Origin: Bacteroidota bacterium
GTDB lineage: Bacteria > Bacteroidota > Bacteroidia > Chitinophagales > Chitinophagaceae
Direction: 5' to 3'
DNA length: 33,321 nt
NCBI GenBank assembly: GCA_013286835.1
Contig: JABDEZ010000021.1
Span: forward strand, 1 to 33,321
Made by a program: the position numbers and the translations under genes. Below the pieces are notes generated by a model. It saw nothing but the letters and a program-made list of their open reading frames with translations. It had not been told where the DNA came from and ran no database searches. Of this stretch, positions 7,868-30,482 are shown piece after piece (position 1 is the first letter of the stretch; every line of letters begins with the position of its first letter).

Positions 7868-9217
7868 ATGAAACTATTATTACAGAACGCACATATAGAA
7901 GGTATCAGGTTTTACGATGCTTACCGTAAGAATGGTGGTTACCAGTCTGTAGAGAAGGCGTTTAAGATGAGTACCGATGCTATAGTGGAAGAGGTGAAGA
8001 AAAGCGGCCTTCGTGGTCGTGGAGGCGCCGGTTTTCCTACGGGTATGAAGTGGAGTTTCCTGGCTAAACCCGAAGGCGTGCCACGTCACTTAGTATGTAA
8101 TGCCGATGAATCAGAACCGGGTACTTTTAAAGACCGTTACCTGATGGAGTTTCTGCCACACCTGCTGATAGAAGGCCTGATAGTAAGTAGTTATGCACTG
8201 GGTAGCAACGCAACATATATATACATACGTGGCGAGTACGCCTGGATAACAGATATACTGGAACAAGCTATTGCCGAAGCCAAACAAAATGGTTGGCTGG
8301 GTAAGAATATTCTGGGCAGTGGCTTCGATTGCGAAATATACGTGCATCGCGGTGCGGGAGCATATATATGTGGTGAGGAAACAGCGTTGATAGAATCACT
8401 GGAAGGCAAGCGTGGCAACCCACGCCTGAAACCACCATTCCCCGCTATACAGGGTGTGTGGATGCGCCCGACTGTGGTGAATAATGTGGAAACATTGGCG
8501 GCTATTGTACCCATTATCAATATGGGTGGTGAAGAATATGCTAAAATTGGTGTAGGCCGCTCTACCGGTACAAAACTATTGTCTGTTTGCGGTAACGTAA
8601 ATAAGCCGGGTGTGTACGAAATTGACATGACCATTTCGGTTGAGGAGTTTATATACAGCGATAAATATTGCGGTGGCATACCCAATGGCAAAAGGCTAAA
8701 GGCTTGCATACCGGGTGGTTCGTCAGTACCTATCGTACCTGCTAACCTGTTGTTTAAAACAGCAAAAGGCGAAACCCGTATGATGAACTACGAAAGTTTA
8801 TCTGATGGTGGTTTTGCAACAGGTACTATGATGGGCTCTGGGGGATTTATAGTGTTGGATGAAGATCAGTGTGTGGTAAGACATACTATGACACTTGCAC
8901 GTTTCTACAACCACGAAAGCTGTGGGCAATGCAGTCCGTGCCGTGAAGGTACCGGATGGATGTACAAAATATTGAAGAACATAGAGAACGGTCAGGGTAA
9001 ACTAAGCGATATAGATTTGCTTTGGGATATACAACGCCGGATAGAAGGTAATACAATTTGCCCGTTGGGTGATGCAGCAGCTTGGCCGGTGGCCGCGGCT
9101 ATCCGCCACTTCAGGGATGAATTTGAATGGCATGTGCTGAATCCTGAAGAATCGCAAAGGCGTAATTACGGTATCGCACATTATGCTGATCCGTTGCCAA
9201 TGGTTGGTGCGGTGTAA
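7868..9217 (+). CDS. nuoF: NADH-quinone oxidoreductase subunit F (51 kDa; FMN, NADH, 4Fe-4S)
   Basis: 'GLRGRGGAGFPTGMKWSF', 'CNADESEPGTFKDR', 'HESCGQCSPCREGTGW', 'NTICPLGDAAAWP'. Confidence 0.97.
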   Translation: MKLLLQNAHIEGIRFYDAYRKNGGYQSVEKAFKMSTDAIVEEVKKSGLRGRGGAGFPTGMKWSFLAKPEGVPRHLVCNADESEPGTFKDRYLMEFLPHLLIEGLIVSSYALGSNATYIYIRGEYAWITDILEQAIAEAKQNGWLGKNILGSGFDCEIYVHRGAGAYICGEETALIESLEGKRGNPRLKPPFPAIQGVWMRPTVVNNVETLAAIVPIINMGGEEYAKIGVGRSTGTKLLSVCGNVNKPGVYEIDMTISVEEFIYSDKYCGGIPNGKRLKACIPGGSSVPIVPANLLFKTAKGETRMMNYESLSDGGFATGTMMGSGGFIVLDEDQCVVRHTMTLARFYNHESCGQCSPCREGTGWMYKILKNIENGQGKLSDIDLLWDIQRRIEGNTICPLGDAAAWPVAAAIRHFRDEFEWHVLNPEESQRRNYGIAHYADPLPMVGAV

Positions 9218-9275: not shown

Positions 9276-10361
9276 ATGTCTGAGGTTCAGAACTTTAAAG
9301 TAACGATAGATAATATAACAGTAGAGGTAGCGCCCGGCACTACTATACTTAATGCTGCACGTGCTATTGGTGGCGAGGTTGCGCCGCCTGCTATGTGCTA
9401 CTACAGCAAGCTGAAAGATAGTGGTGGTAAGTGCCGTACTTGCCTGGTAGAGGTCAGCAAGGGTTCTGAAAAAGACCCGCGTCCTATGCCTAAACTGGTC
9501 GCAAGCTGCCGTACTACCGTTATGGATGGTATGGAAGTGAAGAACATCACTTCTGAAAAAGTATTGGACGCCCGTAAGGGGATCGTTGAAATGTTGTTGA
9601 TTAATCACCCGCTGGATTGCCCCGTGTGTGACCAAGCCGGTGAGTGCGACTTGCAGAACCTGAGCTATGAGCATGGTTCAGAAAAAACACGCTACGAGTT
9701 TAAGCGTCGTACGTTTGAGAAAGAAGATATAGGGCCTTACATACAGTTGCACATGACGCGTTGCATTATGTGTTTCCGTTGTGTATATACTGCCGATCAG
9801 CTTACAGATAAACGTGAGCACGGTATATTGGACCGTGGCGACCATGCACAGATCAGCACATTGCTGGGTAAGTCGCTGGATCATGACTTTATAGGTAATG
9901 TAATAGATGTTTGCCCCGTTGGCGCATTAACAGATAAAACATTCCGCTTTAAGAACCGTGTATGGTTTGCCAAACCGGTAGATGCCCACCGCGATTGCCC
10001 TACCTGCAAGGGTAAGGTACGGTTGTGGATGCGTGGCGAAGAAGTATTTCGCGTAACTGCCCGTAAAGATGAGTGGGGTGAAGTTGAAGATTTTATCTGT
10101 AACGATTGCCGCTTCCATAAAAAAGAAACAAAGGACTGGGTAATAGAAGGCCCATCAGTGGTAGACAGACGCAGCGTAATAGCGCAAGGGCATTACCAGG
10201 GTAAGGTAGGTATGGTTAAAGAACAGCCCAGGCTCATTGACCAGGTTATAGGTAAAGCGCCTAAGTTGCTGATGGACATCCATAGCATAAGCGATGTTAA
10301 CCGTCCGGATGTAGACCTTTCTCAAATAGAGGGGCCTGCACATTCTGATGATTTTGAATAG
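9276..10361 (+). CDS. nuoG: NADH-quinone oxidoreductase subunit G, short form without the molybdopterin-oxidoreductase-like domain
   Basis: 2Fe-2S 'PPAMCYYSKLKDSGGKCRTCLVEV', 'HPLDCPVCDQAGECDLQN', 'RCIMCFRCVY', 'CPVGALTDK', then 'CPTCKGK...FICNDCRF'; stops at 361 aa. Confidence 0.9.
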   Translation: MSEVQNFKVTIDNITVEVAPGTTILNAARAIGGEVAPPAMCYYSKLKDSGGKCRTCLVEVSKGSEKDPRPMPKLVASCRTTVMDGMEVKNITSEKVLDARKGIVEMLLINHPLDCPVCDQAGECDLQNLSYEHGSEKTRYEFKRRTFEKEDIGPYIQLHMTRCIMCFRCVYTADQLTDKREHGILDRGDHAQISTLLGKSLDHDFIGNVIDVCPVGALTDKTFRFKNRVWFAKPVDAHRDCPTCKGKVRLWMRGEEVFRVTARKDEWGEVEDFICNDCRFHKKETKDWVIEGPSVVDRRSVIAQGHYQGKVGMVKEQPRLIDQVIGKAPKLLMDIHSISDVNRPDVDLSQIEGPAHSDDFE

Positions 10362-20536: not shown

Positions 20537-21184
20537 TCACTTAGGCTTACCTGTCAAATACTTCCACACTGGCACAGCCAGCATCGCACCCACAACTGGC
20601 GCAGCAATATAGATCCATAAATGCTCTAAGTGACCAGATGCTATTGCGGGACCTATGGAGCGTGCCGGGTTCATCGAGGCGCCGCAAATGGGTCCGGCAA
20701 ACATAGCTTCAAGCGCTACAACACCGCCAATGGCAAGCCCTGCAAACATGCCTTGCTCTTTACTGCCGATTGCCACATTAACGATGACCAGCATTAAAAA
20801 GAAAGTCAGGATAAGTTCAAGGATAAAGGATTGCATTTCTGTTCCTGCTGGCAAGGTTGCCCCAAGAAATTCATTACTAGGAAACAGGAATTTCAAGGTT
20901 AGACTTGCCAGCAATGCGCCCGCTAACTGGCTGATGATATATCCCGGCAATTGCATGAGCGGGAAGCGTTTGGCTATTGTAAAGGCAATAGTTACCGCAG
21001 GGTTTAAATGTGCCCCCGATATATTGCCCAGGCTATAGATCATACTCATCACAATTAGGCCAAAGGTGGTGGCAACACCAACATGGGTCACGCTGCCTCC
21101 GGATTGCTGGTCAATAATAACCGCTCCGGTGCCACAAAATACCAGGGCAAAGGTGCCTATTAGTTCTGCTATATAGTTCTTCAT
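20537..21184 (-). CDS. MIP family channel (aquaporin/aquaglyceroporin), arsenic-cluster-linked
   Basis: Two NPA boxes 'SGAHLNPAVTIAF' and 'CGASMNPARSIGP', six hydrophobic segments. Start preferred at MKNYIAELIG (21184), 1 nt past the DUF6428 stop. Confidence 0.93.
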   Translation of the reverse strand: MKNYIAELIGTFALVFCGTGAVIIDQQSGGSVTHVGVATTFGLIVMSMIYSLGNISGAHLNPAVTIAFTIAKRFPLMQLPGYIISQLAGALLASLTLKFLFPSNEFLGATLPAGTEMQSFILELILTFFLMLVIVNVAIGSKEQGMFAGLAIGGVVALEAMFAGPICGASMNPARSIGPAIASGHLEHLWIYIAAPVVGAMLAVPVWKYLTGKPK

Positions 21185-21185
21185 A

Positions 21186-21650
21186 TTAGCAACAGCCTCC
21201 ACCAGGTGTACAGCAAGCAGCTTGAACGGTTAATTCAGACAATGCAATTTTCTTTTTAGGTATGCCACATGCATCTTGTGCCAGGCAAGCAGTTTGCTTG
21301 GGCGTAAGTAAGAAGTCTTTGCCGTCAAACTCAAGGCCAAACTTTCCAATAGTTCCTTGCTGATACTCAACTTCTATATCAAGATCCTCACTACCCAAGA
21401 TCTTTTGCGATAGATTAAGAATGTGCAGGAACTTTTGCGGAGCCAAACGGTGATCGTAGTCACCTGCTTCCCATAGCTGGAAATTCGCGGCGGTTTCTTT
21501 ACGTTCTGTGCCACCACAGTCAATAAAATGTTTTGTGATCAAGCCTACTTCTGTAACATGAAAGTGAACAGGTAAGTAGCTATTGTCAGGAAGCCTGAAG
21601 TTGACTGCGGATACTTCTGCTAAATATTGTTTTAGTTCTGAAATTTTCAT
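21186..21650 (-). CDS. DUF6428-like protein with Cys-rich C-terminus (CCTPGGGCC)
   Basis: 'MKISELKQYLAEVSAVNFRLPDNSYLPVHFHVTEVG...KHFIDCGG...' resembles Bacteroidota proteins found in arsenic loci; located between arsC and the MIP gene. Confidence 0.75.
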   Translation of the reverse strand: MKISELKQYLAEVSAVNFRLPDNSYLPVHFHVTEVGLITKHFIDCGGTERKETAANFQLWEAGDYDHRLAPQKFLHILNLSQKILGSEDLDIEVEYQQGTIGKFGLEFDGKDFLLTPKQTACLAQDACGIPKKKIALSELTVQAACCTPGGGCC

Positions 21651-21684
21651 TTTTTGATTTTTTTTTAAGTTTCAAAAAAGATAA

Positions 21685-22137
21685 TTACATCCAGTATTTC
21701 AATTCACTGGCTTCCGTAATAAAGCCCGCTATTTTTTCTTTTATTTCATCTCGCACAAGCCGGGTTCTTTCTAGTTTTTCTTCTTCTGTTCCAGCAAATT
21801 GAGAAGGGTCTGTAAACGACCATGCAAGCCTTTTTACCTTGCCCGGAAACACTGGGCATTTTTCTGCGTTTGCAGCATCACAAACGGTAACTACAGCATC
21901 ATACTTTCTGCCTTCTTTTAGAAAGTCAAGAACCTCATTTGTTTGTTTACCGCTTATGTCAATACCTGCTTCTGCCATTACCTTAACAACCAGTGGATTA
22001 AGTTTTCCTTTTTCAATACCTGCACTTTCCGCCTCAAATAGCTCGCCACCCATATTGTTCAGAAAAGCCTCAGCCATCTGGCTGCGTGCCGAGTTGTGAA
22101 TACAAACAAATAATACTTTGTGTTTAATGCTTGACAT
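21685..22137 (-). CDS. arsC: Arsenate reductase, low-molecular-weight phosphatase-like (thioredoxin-coupled type)
   Basis: 'VLFVCIHNSARSQMAEAFLN' P-loop, 'VVTVCDAANAEKCPVFPG' redox Cys pair, 'AWSFTDPSQF'. Confidence 0.94.
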   Translation of the reverse strand: MSSIKHKVLFVCIHNSARSQMAEAFLNNMGGELFEAESAGIEKGKLNPLVVKVMAEAGIDISGKQTNEVLDFLKEGRKYDAVVTVCDAANAEKCPVFPGKVKRLAWSFTDPSQFAGTEEEKLERTRLVRDEIKEKIAGFITEASELKYWM

Positions 22138-22155
22138 GATTCAATTTTTAGTCAA

Positions 22156-22176
22156 TCTATTTATTGCAATATTGCG
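22156..22176 (-). promoter_or_regulatory. Operator/promoter-like element, copy A, upstream of arsC
   Basis: TCTATTTATTGCAATATTGCG (plus-strand reading); 19/21 identical to copy B; contains the 10-bp palindrome TATTGCAATA. Confidence 0.6.
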
Positions 22177-22198
22177 TTTAATTGATACAAAAAAATAC

Positions 22199-22531
22199 TT
22201 AACAGCACGTATTAGTATCCAGTTTTACATCCCCGAAAAATTCGGTAAAGAAGAGCCTGTACTGTTTCCACATCTTTGGGTTGATACAATAACAAACACT
22301 GGTACCTTCAACCGTTCCTTGTATAATGCCGGCATTTTTAAGCTCTTTTAAGTGTTGCGATATTGTGGGTTGTGCAAGCCCCAGTTCCTCAGCAAGGTCA
22401 CCACAGATGCATGCATTGGTTTTCACCAATTGCTGCAGTATAGCAATACGGGCCGGGTGGCCTATGGCCTTGGCCATATTGGCAAGTTCATTTTGTTTTT
22501 TAGTAAATAAATCTGTTTTAGTTGCGCCCAT
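22199..22531 (-). CDS. arsR: ArsR/SmtB family metalloregulator
   Basis: wHTH 'NELANMAKAIGHPARIAILQQL...CICGDLAEELGLAQPTISQHLKELKNAGIIQGTVEGTSVCYCINP', C-terminal CC. Confidence 0.92.
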   Translation of the reverse strand: MGATKTDLFTKKQNELANMAKAIGHPARIAILQQLVKTNACICGDLAEELGLAQPTISQHLKELKNAGIIQGTVEGTSVCYCINPKMWKQYRLFFTEFFGDVKLDTNTCC

Positions 22532-29140: not shown

Positions 29141-29752
29141 TTAAAATGCATTAGCAAAAAGATCTGCTTTCTTTATCCAGCCAGAAATGGTAACAGGGCG
29201 TTTTAAATTATAGTTCACGTACTCAGCTTTTACCCAATCGCCATTGTATTCTAATACACCCACAATGTCATATACCGTTATATAAGCCTGCATTCTTTTA
29301 TTCACATCTGGCTCAGCGTAGAAAAATGTTTTACGGCTCTTTGCCATGTTTATCCCCAGCCAATTTTCTTTTTGTACCAGTTTGGCGTTATAACCATCCT
29401 TGTCAAGGCCGGTGCATGCAGTAGATCCCGGGGGTAAATGTTTAAGCTTTATGATAAAGCTCGTGTCCAATTCAAAAGTTATACTGCCTTTTATAGCTGC
29501 GCTGTCGTCTGGCCACGAGGTGGTGATCTTTATTTTCTTACCCTTAAGGGCTTTGTATTCCCCTTTAAAATTGAATGCGCAGCAGTCATGTCCATCGTGC
29601 AGGCATGTGTTGAAATTTCCGTAGATCGTCTTCGTTTGTTCGTTTCTAAAAATGGTTACTGTGGCAACGCCATTATAAACACCGGTAGCTGGTACCTGTC
29701 CAAGGGCATAGTAACCGGCAAAGAGGGTAACAATTAAAAAAAGATATTTCAT
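29141..29752 (-). CDS. Secreted protein of unknown function with C-terminal SH3-like segment
   Basis: Signal peptide 'MKYLFLIVTLFAGYYALGQ'; C-terminal 'VYDIVGVLEYNGDWVKAEYVN...ISGWIKKADLF'. Confidence 0.65.
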   Translation of the reverse strand: MKYLFLIVTLFAGYYALGQVPATGVYNGVATVTIFRNEQTKTIYGNFNTCLHDGHDCCAFNFKGEYKALKGKKIKITTSWPDDSAAIKGSITFELDTSFIIKLKHLPPGSTACTGLDKDGYNAKLVQKENWLGINMAKSRKTFFYAEPDVNKRMQAYITVYDIVGVLEYNGDWVKAEYVNYNLKRPVTISGWIKKADLFANAF

Positions 29753-29765
29753 GCCAATAAAGGTA

Positions 29766-29924
29766 AGTGACGTTGATGAAATAAATACTACCAGATGGCG
29801 CAGTTATTTTTCTTTTCTTCTAAGCGTAAAATCTGCGAATAGAAGCCTATTTAAAGACTTTTACAACAAAAAAGAAAAGAAAAAGAGCAAGTCAAGTGAT
29901 GGTATTTATTTCATCATCGTCACT
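29766..29924. repeat. 159-nt near-full-length imperfect palindrome (long hairpin/MITE-like element)
   Basis: Outer arms 29766-29788/29902-29924 complementary at 22/23; inner arms 29807-29819/29872-29884 at 13/13; GTAAAA/TTTTAC at 29826/29859; AATAG-AAGC-CTATT at the centre. All share an axis near 29845. Confidence 0.85.
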
Positions 29925-29939
29925 AAGGGGTTAACATAT

Positions 29940-29964
29940 AAAAAGCGGCCGTTTGCCCGCTCTT
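29940..29964 (-). terminator. Rho-independent terminator for the DinB-family gene
   Basis: Minus strand: AGCGG-gcaaacgg-CCGCT followed by TTTT, 21 bp past the stop at 29985. Confidence 0.65.
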
Positions 29965-29984
29965 AAATATTTCTTGTACTGTTT

Positions 29985-30482
29985 TTAGTTCATCTCATCA
30001 GCAGATGGGCCATACATGCCAGGTACTGGTATATTATGCTGGCGCAGGTAAGTAGTTAGCTGGCCGCGGTGGTGTACACTGTGGTTCATAGCGCTGCCAC
30101 GTATAACTGCTACTTTAGGCAATTGAAAGATAATATGGTCACCGTTCCGGAGGGTCCATATTTTCATCATATCTTCATCTGTGCTTTTTTCCAGCGCTTC
30201 TACTGCAGCTTGTACGTTCTTATCCAGTAATGCTATCAGTTCTTCATTGCTGTTTACAGGCGTAGGCTTGTATGTCATTGCAGCCAGGTCAAATTCGTCT
30301 GTGTTGATGGTCATGGTGATCCATCCCGGCAGTTCAGCTACATGGGTAGCCAGGCGCCCCATAGGCATAGATTTTTCATGCGGTTTCCAACCCAGTTGGT
30401 CGAAGGGAATACGTTCAAAGATTTTTTTTGTATTTGCGGCTTCCATAGCCAGCTCTGCGATCAAAGGCTTACTCATTGACAT
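29985..30482 (-). CDS. DinB family protein
   Basis: 'AANTKKIFERIPFDQLGWKPHEKSMPMGRLATHVAELPGW...HSVHHRGQLTTYLRQHNIPVPGMYGPSADE', His motifs. Confidence 0.9.
   Translation of the reverse strand: MSMSKPLIAELAMEAANTKKIFERIPFDQLGWKPHEKSMPMGRLATHVAELPGWITMTINTDEFDLAAMTYKPTPVNSNEELIALLDKNVQAAVEALEKSTDEDMMKIWTLRNGDHIIFQLPKVAVIRGSAMNHSVHHRGQLTTYLRQHNIPVPGMYGPSADEMN

What the first reader, a model, noticed from the sequence alone, without database searches (positions are those of the whole stretch)
29766..29924. 159-nt palindromic element complementary along nearly its whole length, next to a secreted-protein gene start
Seen: outer arms AGTGACGTTGATGAAATAAATAC and GTATTTATTTCATCATCGTCACT (22/23 complementary), inner arms TTTTTCTTTTCTT and AAGAAAAGAAAAA (13/13), GTAAAA/TTTTAC, and AATAG-AAGC-CTATT at the centre, all on one axis. 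It lies between the DinB terminator and the ATG at 29752, ending 13 nt upstream of that ATG. The arms also flank a TACCTTTA -7-like box. Options: a MITE-like insertion, a long hairpin leader or ncRNA, or a cruciform affecting the promoter. No clean target-site duplication is visible.
Basis: partly seen in the sequence, partly recalled or inferred. Interest (0 to 1): 0.68.

Follow-up and report, generated by a model that had tools for sequence, protein, structure and literature searches.

The report
Family of mobile DNA hairpins
The 159-base hairpin is one copy of a small, non-coding, jumping DNA element found in scattered copies across many Bacteroidota genomes; only one of its two strands looks shaped to fold, which is odd for an ordinary miniature transposon, and what moves it is unknown.

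Summary
Window 29766-29924 is a near-complete imperfect palindrome (z about -9.7 on both strands). It is a dispersed element: 3 copies and one remnant in its own genome, and at least 5 copies in a congener, where the window copy sits at the orthologous site. Covariance models found it in 9 of 200 genomes of the family, 46 of 399 of the order and 8 of 396 drawn from the phylum. Copies are mostly 155-163 nt.

The terminal arms are free in sequence but paired (59 of 61 pairs show compensatory changes outside the home family); inner motifs are conserved. Arm mismatches are G.T, not A.C (180 vs 32; 33 genomes vs 1), so only the window + strand appears selected to fold.

No transposase with related ends was found where tested; Rfam, phage, plasmid and viral-contig searches were empty. 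Orientation to neighbouring genes is random, arguing against a leader role. Best reading: a MITE-like, trans-mobilised element recognised through its folded + strand. The mobilising enzyme is unidentified.

The parts
29767..29923 (+). the mobile hairpin element proper (157 bp); + is the strand selected to fold
   Evidence: dispersed copies; ends from target duplications; strand from the wobble test
29764..29766 (.). left copy of the 3-bp target-site duplication, TAA
   Evidence: sequence; family-wide TSD statistics
29924..29926 (.). right copy of the 3-bp target-site duplication, TAA
   Evidence: sequence
29766..29788 (+). left outer arm; sequence free across the family but paired
29902..29924 (+). 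right outer arm, 22 of 23 complementary to the left
29803..29810 (+). conserved inner motif GTTATTTT
   Evidence: order-wide alignment
29820..29831 (+). conserved inner motif; family form C(A/G)AGGCGNAAAA, here CTAAGCGTAAAA
29838..29851 (+). apical hairpin AATAG-AAGC-CTATT
29859..29871 (+). conserved inner motif; family form TTTTNCAACGNAG
29880..29892 (+). conserved inner motif; family form AAAAGAACAAGT
29941..29964 (-). terminator-like hairpin of the DinB gene; context, not part of the element
29141..29752 (-). downstream gene, 203 aa with a signal-like N-terminus, no Pfam match; context
29985..30482 (-). upstream gene, DinB family; context

Best explanation
The feature is one copy of a Bacteroidota family of non-autonomous transposable hairpins of about 157 bp. 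Shown: it has no conserved coding frame, has discrete ends, occurs in scattered intergenic copies, and is flanked by a 3-bp duplication of a YTWAR target. Shown: pairing is maintained along the whole length while the arm sequences are free to change. Shown statistically: mismatches in the arms sit almost only as G.T on the + strand, so one folded single strand is the state under selection. Inferred: a protein supplied in trans recognises the folded + strand, probably through the two conserved internal loops (GTTATTTT/AAAAGAACAAG and CAAGGCGNAAAA/TTTTNCAACGNAG), either as single-stranded DNA exposed at replication or as an RNA, and inserts it at a 3-bp staggered cut. At this locus it is a passenger between the DinB terminator and the next gene, and predates the split of two Flavipsychrobacter-like species.
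For: Dispersed copies: 3 in the own genome at 93-94% identity, at least 5 in the congener, then 9/200, 46/399 and 8/396 genomes, nearly all 155-163 nt. TSD: 60 of 109 non-redundant flanks are exact 3-bp direct duplications, 53 of them TWA and 7 other triplets such as TTT/TTT, AAA/AAA, TCA/TCA; among TWA/TWA flanks the middle base agrees 53:17, p 1e-5. Tandem copies in G333:C561 share a single TTA between neighbours. Pairing: A2 92.7% paired, 35/61 pairs with compensatory change; A4 89.4%, 59/61, covariation 0.711 vs 0.12-0.14 for slid controls. Strand: arms G.T 180 vs A.C 32, 33 genomes vs 1; positions 31-57 126 vs 20; strand assigned by core motif agrees in 111 of 115. No orientation preference to genes.
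Against: A fixed 3-bp TSD is usual for DDE transposases acting on double-stranded DNA and unusual for known single-strand transposases. No mobilising enzyme was identified. G.T excess could in part be a strand-biased mutation effect, and the model search favours G.U slightly. In the innermost region (58+) the naive half-to-half comparison shows the reverse (51 vs 95), where the comparison runs through internal loops. Two genomes (G088, G494) have TAA/TTA flanks in all their TWA-flanked copies (9), not a duplication. Replication-strand bias was inconclusive.
Confidence: 0.6

Rival explanations
1. An ordinary MITE: a deletion derivative of an insertion sequence (3-bp TNA-type target, as recalled for IS1031/ISL2-like IS5 groups), moved as double-stranded DNA by a DDE transposase that binds the inverted ends; the hairpin is only a by-product of terminal inverted repeats.
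For: Terminal inverted repeats, no ORF, AT-rich intergenic targets, fixed short TSD. Inverted ends bound by one protein would also co-vary.
Against: Ends vary freely between hosts while the inside is conserved, the opposite of IS-derived MITEs. The inner stems co-vary too. One-strand wobble bias is not expected for double-stranded recognition. No larger element with related ends in G000, G001, G131, G139, G198, G208 or in G356/G427. DDE_Tnp_1 is rare or absent in six carriers checked.
Confidence: 0.25
2. A functional structured RNA (cis-regulatory leader, or small RNA processed by RNase III) that the host keeps; the window copy regulates the downstream secreted-protein gene.
For: + strand wobble bias and strong covariation. 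The window copy differs from its orthologue at 8 of 159 sites (5%), against 20% and 31% of third codon positions in the two neighbouring genes.
Against: No Rfam family matches. Orientation to genes is random, 25 sense vs 24 antisense, and in the window the selected strand is antisense to the gene. Different genes flank different copies. Copies move, collapse and decay. Low divergence between orthologues could be copy-to-copy conversion: paralogues are as close as orthologues.
Confidence: 0.08
3. An attC-like or REP-like site: a folded-strand substrate of an integron integrase or of a RAYT (HUH) transposase.
For: Folded-strand selection is typical of both systems. In G685 a copy lies 51 nt upstream of a frameshifted integron integrase. 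A RAYT-like gene lies about 300 nt from a copy in G254. RAYT subclass 2.6 of Bacteroidetes is reported next to 'atypical secondary structures' with copies elsewhere in the genome (PMC6006769).
Against: attC core motifs at both ends in 1 of 115 copies; GT(A/G)G foot in 1 of 115. Integron integrase above the curated cut-off in 1 of 40 genomes tested and not above Xer-level scores in the home-family carriers. The G254 RAYT gene carries its own short palindrome and is the only RAYT-like motif hit in 1 Mb of loci (relatives by tblastn only in that same region). Neither system is known to leave 3-bp duplications.
Confidence: 0.06
4. A chance or degenerate AT-rich structure without copies.
For: AT-rich sequence (32% G+C).
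Confidence: 0.01

Closest known systems
MITEs such as Correia/NEMIS, RUP, QMITE (reviewed in PMC10969869)
   Same: small, non-coding, terminal inverted repeats, short target duplication, intergenic AT-rich sites, transcripts that would fold
   Different: no parent IS found; ends vary between hosts while the centre is conserved; length held near 157 bp across families; one strand only is selected to fold
ERIC / YPAL type palindromic elements
   Same: imperfect palindrome over the whole length, 100-170 bp, intergenic (from memory)
   Different: sequence similarity not tested; known from another phylum; here a clear 3-bp duplication and a covarying arm structure
REP / REPIN elements and RAYT transposases, including Bacteroidetes RAYT subclass 2.6 (PMC6006769)
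   Same: palindromic, multi-copy, folded single strand matters
   Different: about 157 nt not 20-40; no GT(A/G)G foot (1 of 115); target duplications; not linked to RAYT genes in the loci read
Integron attC sites
   Same: imperfect palindromes of variable sequence recognised as a folded single strand, with conserved unpaired features
   Different: no RYYYAAC...GTTRRRY ends (1 of 115), no cassette arrays seen, TSDs present, no integron integrase in most carriers tested
Rickettsia palindromic elements (RPE)
   Same: mobile palindromes of roughly 100-150 bp
   Different: RPEs lie in-frame in proteins; here the frame is not kept across the family (12 of 113 open)

Membership tests
MITE | dispersed non-coding copies with terminal inverted repeats | tested here: met
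MITE | target-site duplication of fixed length | tested here: met
   3 bp, 60 of 109 flanks exact
MITE | ends shared with an autonomous IS of the same or a related genome | tested here: not met
   end-pattern searches in 8 genomes found only the elements, their fragments and chance matches; draft assemblies, so not exhaustive
IS5-group (IS1031/ISL2) derivative | 3-bp TNA-type duplication | tested here: met
   TWA with YTWAR context; family attribution of this feature is from memory
IS5-group (IS1031/ISL2) derivative | IS5-type transposase in carriers | tested here: inconclusive
   PF01609 one match each in G131, G139, G219, a sub-threshold one in G001, none in G198, G208; other DDE families not searched
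REP/REPIN | GT(A/G)G foot beside a short hairpin | tested here: not met
   1 of 115 copies
REP/REPIN | linked RAYT gene | tested here: inconclusive
   one RAYT-like gene near a copy in about 1 Mb of loci; carriers not searched genome-wide for PF01797
attC | RYYYAAC and GTTRRRY at the ends | tested here: not met
   1 of 115 copies
attC | integron integrase in carrier genomes | tested here: not met
   over cut-off only in G685
Rfam RNA families | score at or above a family's gathering cut-off | tested here: not met
   for the whole window; searches show no match reaching a gathering score
Protein-coding palindrome (RPE-like) | open frame kept through the element | tested here: not met

The most novel reading that the evidence does not exclude
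A new class of mobile element whose transposing form is one specific folded strand (single-stranded DNA or RNA) of about 157 nt, recognised by structure and two internal-loop motifs rather than by end sequence, yet inserted with a 3-bp target duplication, by an enzyme not yet linked to any known family, and spread over much of a phylum.
Probability: 0.3. Interest if true: 0.88.

Novelty: new variant of a known kind. Interest (0 to 1): 0.7.

Why it matters
If the one-strand folding signal means what it appears to mean, this element breaks the usual division between double-strand transposons (inverted ends, target duplication) and folded-strand elements (no duplication). It also gives a widespread, so far apparently undescribed repeat family that affects annotation of intergenic regions in many Bacteroidota genomes, and a covariance model with which carriers, recent insertions and the mobilising enzyme can be looked for.

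Tried and rejected
Autonomous partner: end-pattern searches and inverted-partner scans gave only elements, fragments and chance matches; the 597-nt pair of ends in G131:C38 is two broken copies around a cold-shock gene. Coding: the f1 copies share an apparent frame, including the window (71 aa ORF 29751-29966), but across the family only 12 of 113 are open and spacing between anchors is not a fixed multiple of 3. Integron integrase: the G685 neighbour is a true integron integrase, but co-occurrence failed. RAYT: one neighbour in G254, own short palindrome inside the gene. Order-level hits as unrelated palindromes: rejected by reading the sequences. Replication-strand orientation: G356 has no usable GC skew; G615 has 5 copies, by my reading 4 on one replication strand, too few. 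Phage, plasmid and viral-contig collections: no match. Rfam weak hits below cut-off, mostly microRNA-type long hairpins, were ignored.

Full report
1. The observation. The folded energy is about ten standard deviations below dinucleotide shuffles on either strand as RNA and -34.6 kcal/mol, z -9.2, as DNA. A scan of the whole window gives no second hairpin near it.

2. It is a repeat. In the own genome (G000, 69% complete) full copies lie at C60:5265-5423 (-) and C23:30474-30631 (+), 93-94% identical, and C32:23840-23917 holds a shortened one. The window copy and G001:C38 are at the same site, as are C23 and G001:C34, so these insertions predate the split of the two species; other copies are not shared in the flanks compared, except the remnant C32 with G001:C19.

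3. The family. A covariance model from seven copies found 9 carriers among 200 genomes of the family. A model from 29 copies found 46 among 399 of the order, in six families. A model from 28 order-level copies found 8 among 396 drawn from the phylum, including another family of the class and one of another class. Copy numbers are lower bounds, because at most 7 to 14 candidates per genome were scored in the large searches. The hits are homologous, not just palindromes: besides their common length they share GTTATTTT, C(A/G)AGGCGNAAAA, an ATAG/CTAT-type tip, TTTTNCAACGNAG and AAAAGAACAAGT in fixed order. Some G131 copies are 202-207 nt through an inserted segment.

4. Insertion. For 109 non-redundant flanks the element runs G...C and is bordered by TWA; 60 are exact 3-bp direct repeats, of which 7 are triplets other than TWA; where both sides are TWA, the middle base agrees 53 times and differs 17 times, one-sided p 1e-5. 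Nine of the 17 come from two genomes (G088, G494) that always show TAA/TTA. Outside the triplet there is mostly a pyrimidine before and a purine after, giving YTWAR. In G333:C561 three copies in the same orientation are separated only by the shared triplet. In the window the duplication is TAA.

5. Structure under selection. On 29 copies 92.7% of pair cells are standard and 35 of 61 pairs show double changes. On 28 copies from other families it is 89.4% and 59 of 61, with a covariation score five to six times that of slid controls. In the outer arms G.T is 180 and A.C 32 (33 genomes against 1, sign test 4e-9); in positions 31-57, 126 and 20. A G.T on one strand is an A.C on the other, so a structure used on both strands, or recognised as double-stranded ends, should give equal numbers. 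The strand was fixed by the core motif, which agrees with the model in 111 of 115. In the innermost part the naive comparison gives 51 and 95; there it runs through internal loops, and I do not use it, but it is unexplained. Strand-biased mutation could produce part of the excess, but would itself require that one strand is specially exposed.

6. Context. Of 122 copies, 33 lie between divergent genes, 25 in tandem pairs in the sense of the genes, 24 antisense, 11 convergent, 6 overlap an ORF, 23 unclassed (simple ORF calling). There is no orientation preference, so a role as leader or terminator of the neighbours is not what keeps the strand bias. In the window the + strand is antisense to both genes. 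The element lies between a terminator-like hairpin of the DinB gene (29941-29964) and the next gene, so transcripts of that gene that start upstream of it would carry the complementary hairpin; an effect on that gene is possible but untested. The window copy differs from its orthologue at 5% of sites, against 20% and 31% of third codon positions next door; the C23 pair differs at 9.5% against 29%. Paralogues are as similar as orthologues, so conversion between copies, or spread shortly before the split, is as good an explanation as constraint.

7. Decay. G001:C19:175245 keeps the 23-nt left arm fused to GTCACT, G356:C1:4456439 is a 45-nt left part fused to the right end, and G000:C32 lost 79 nt relative to its orthologue. 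These look like palindrome-mediated deletions. In the window, two of three private changes in the right inner arm make it match the left arm better, as template-switch correction would.

8. What moves it. Ends-based searches in eight carrier genomes found no longer element with related ends, including G356, which is near-complete in four contigs. IS4/IS5-type transposases (PF01609) are rare in six carriers. Integron integrase does not track the element; attC and REP hallmarks are each met by 1 of 115 copies. The literature held here describes Bacteroidetes RAYTs (subclass 2.6) next to atypical structures with copies elsewhere (PMC6006769); whether those are this family could not be checked, and it is the first thing to test.

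9. Verdict. A MITE-like, non-autonomous hairpin element, new to the libraries searched here, with unusual evidence that one folded strand is the form under selection. Mobility and family: about 0.93. Selection on one folded strand: about 0.75. Folded-strand recognition by a trans-acting enzyme as the mechanism: about 0.55 to 0.6.

Noticed in passing
L288 (G333:C561) 1859-2331: Three same-orientation copies in tandem, neighbours sharing one TTA triplet; suggests repeated insertion at the element's own flank.
   Followed up: partly
L244/L286 (G685:C1:3844538-3844700): GC-rich family member 51 nt upstream of a frameshifted integron integrase (TIGR02249 over cut-off) in a genome of another class.
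   Followed up: partly
L287 (G265:C10) 7939-8099 and 9789-9949: Two near-identical same-orientation copies flank a gene for an AAA ATPase-like protein; a similar ATPase-like gene follows the collapsed copy at G356:C1:4456439.
   Followed up: no
L110 (G131:C38:10418-11014): Two broken copies flank a cold-shock protein gene, with outward ends facing like one larger element.
   Followed up: partly
G131 copies L072, L076, L079, L080: A segment of about 46 nt beginning AACGGCG or AACGGCT and containing CCCTCATTGAG is inserted at the tip in three copies and elsewhere in a fourth; possibly a nested element or an ancestral longer core.
   Followed up: no
L241 (G254:C46) 1987-2592: RAYT-like transposase gene carrying its own short palindrome (GTACGGGCGAATTG/CAATTCGCCCGAAC) inside the reading frame, about 300 nt from a copy; Pfam gave no match.
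   Followed up: partly
L043 (G001:C19:175245-175269): Collapsed copy: 23-nt left arm fused to GTCACT between TAA repeats, at the stop codon of a Crp-like gene.
   Followed up: yes
G615 and G704: Many similar-scoring tyrosine recombinase genes (about 298-305 aa) within one genome each, some scores identical; possible mobile recombinase family.
   Followed up: no
window 20537-22531 (-): ArsR-like regulator, arsenate-reductase-like protein, a small conserved protein and an aquaporin-like channel in a row; looks like an arsenic-resistance cluster (by eye only).
   Followed up: no
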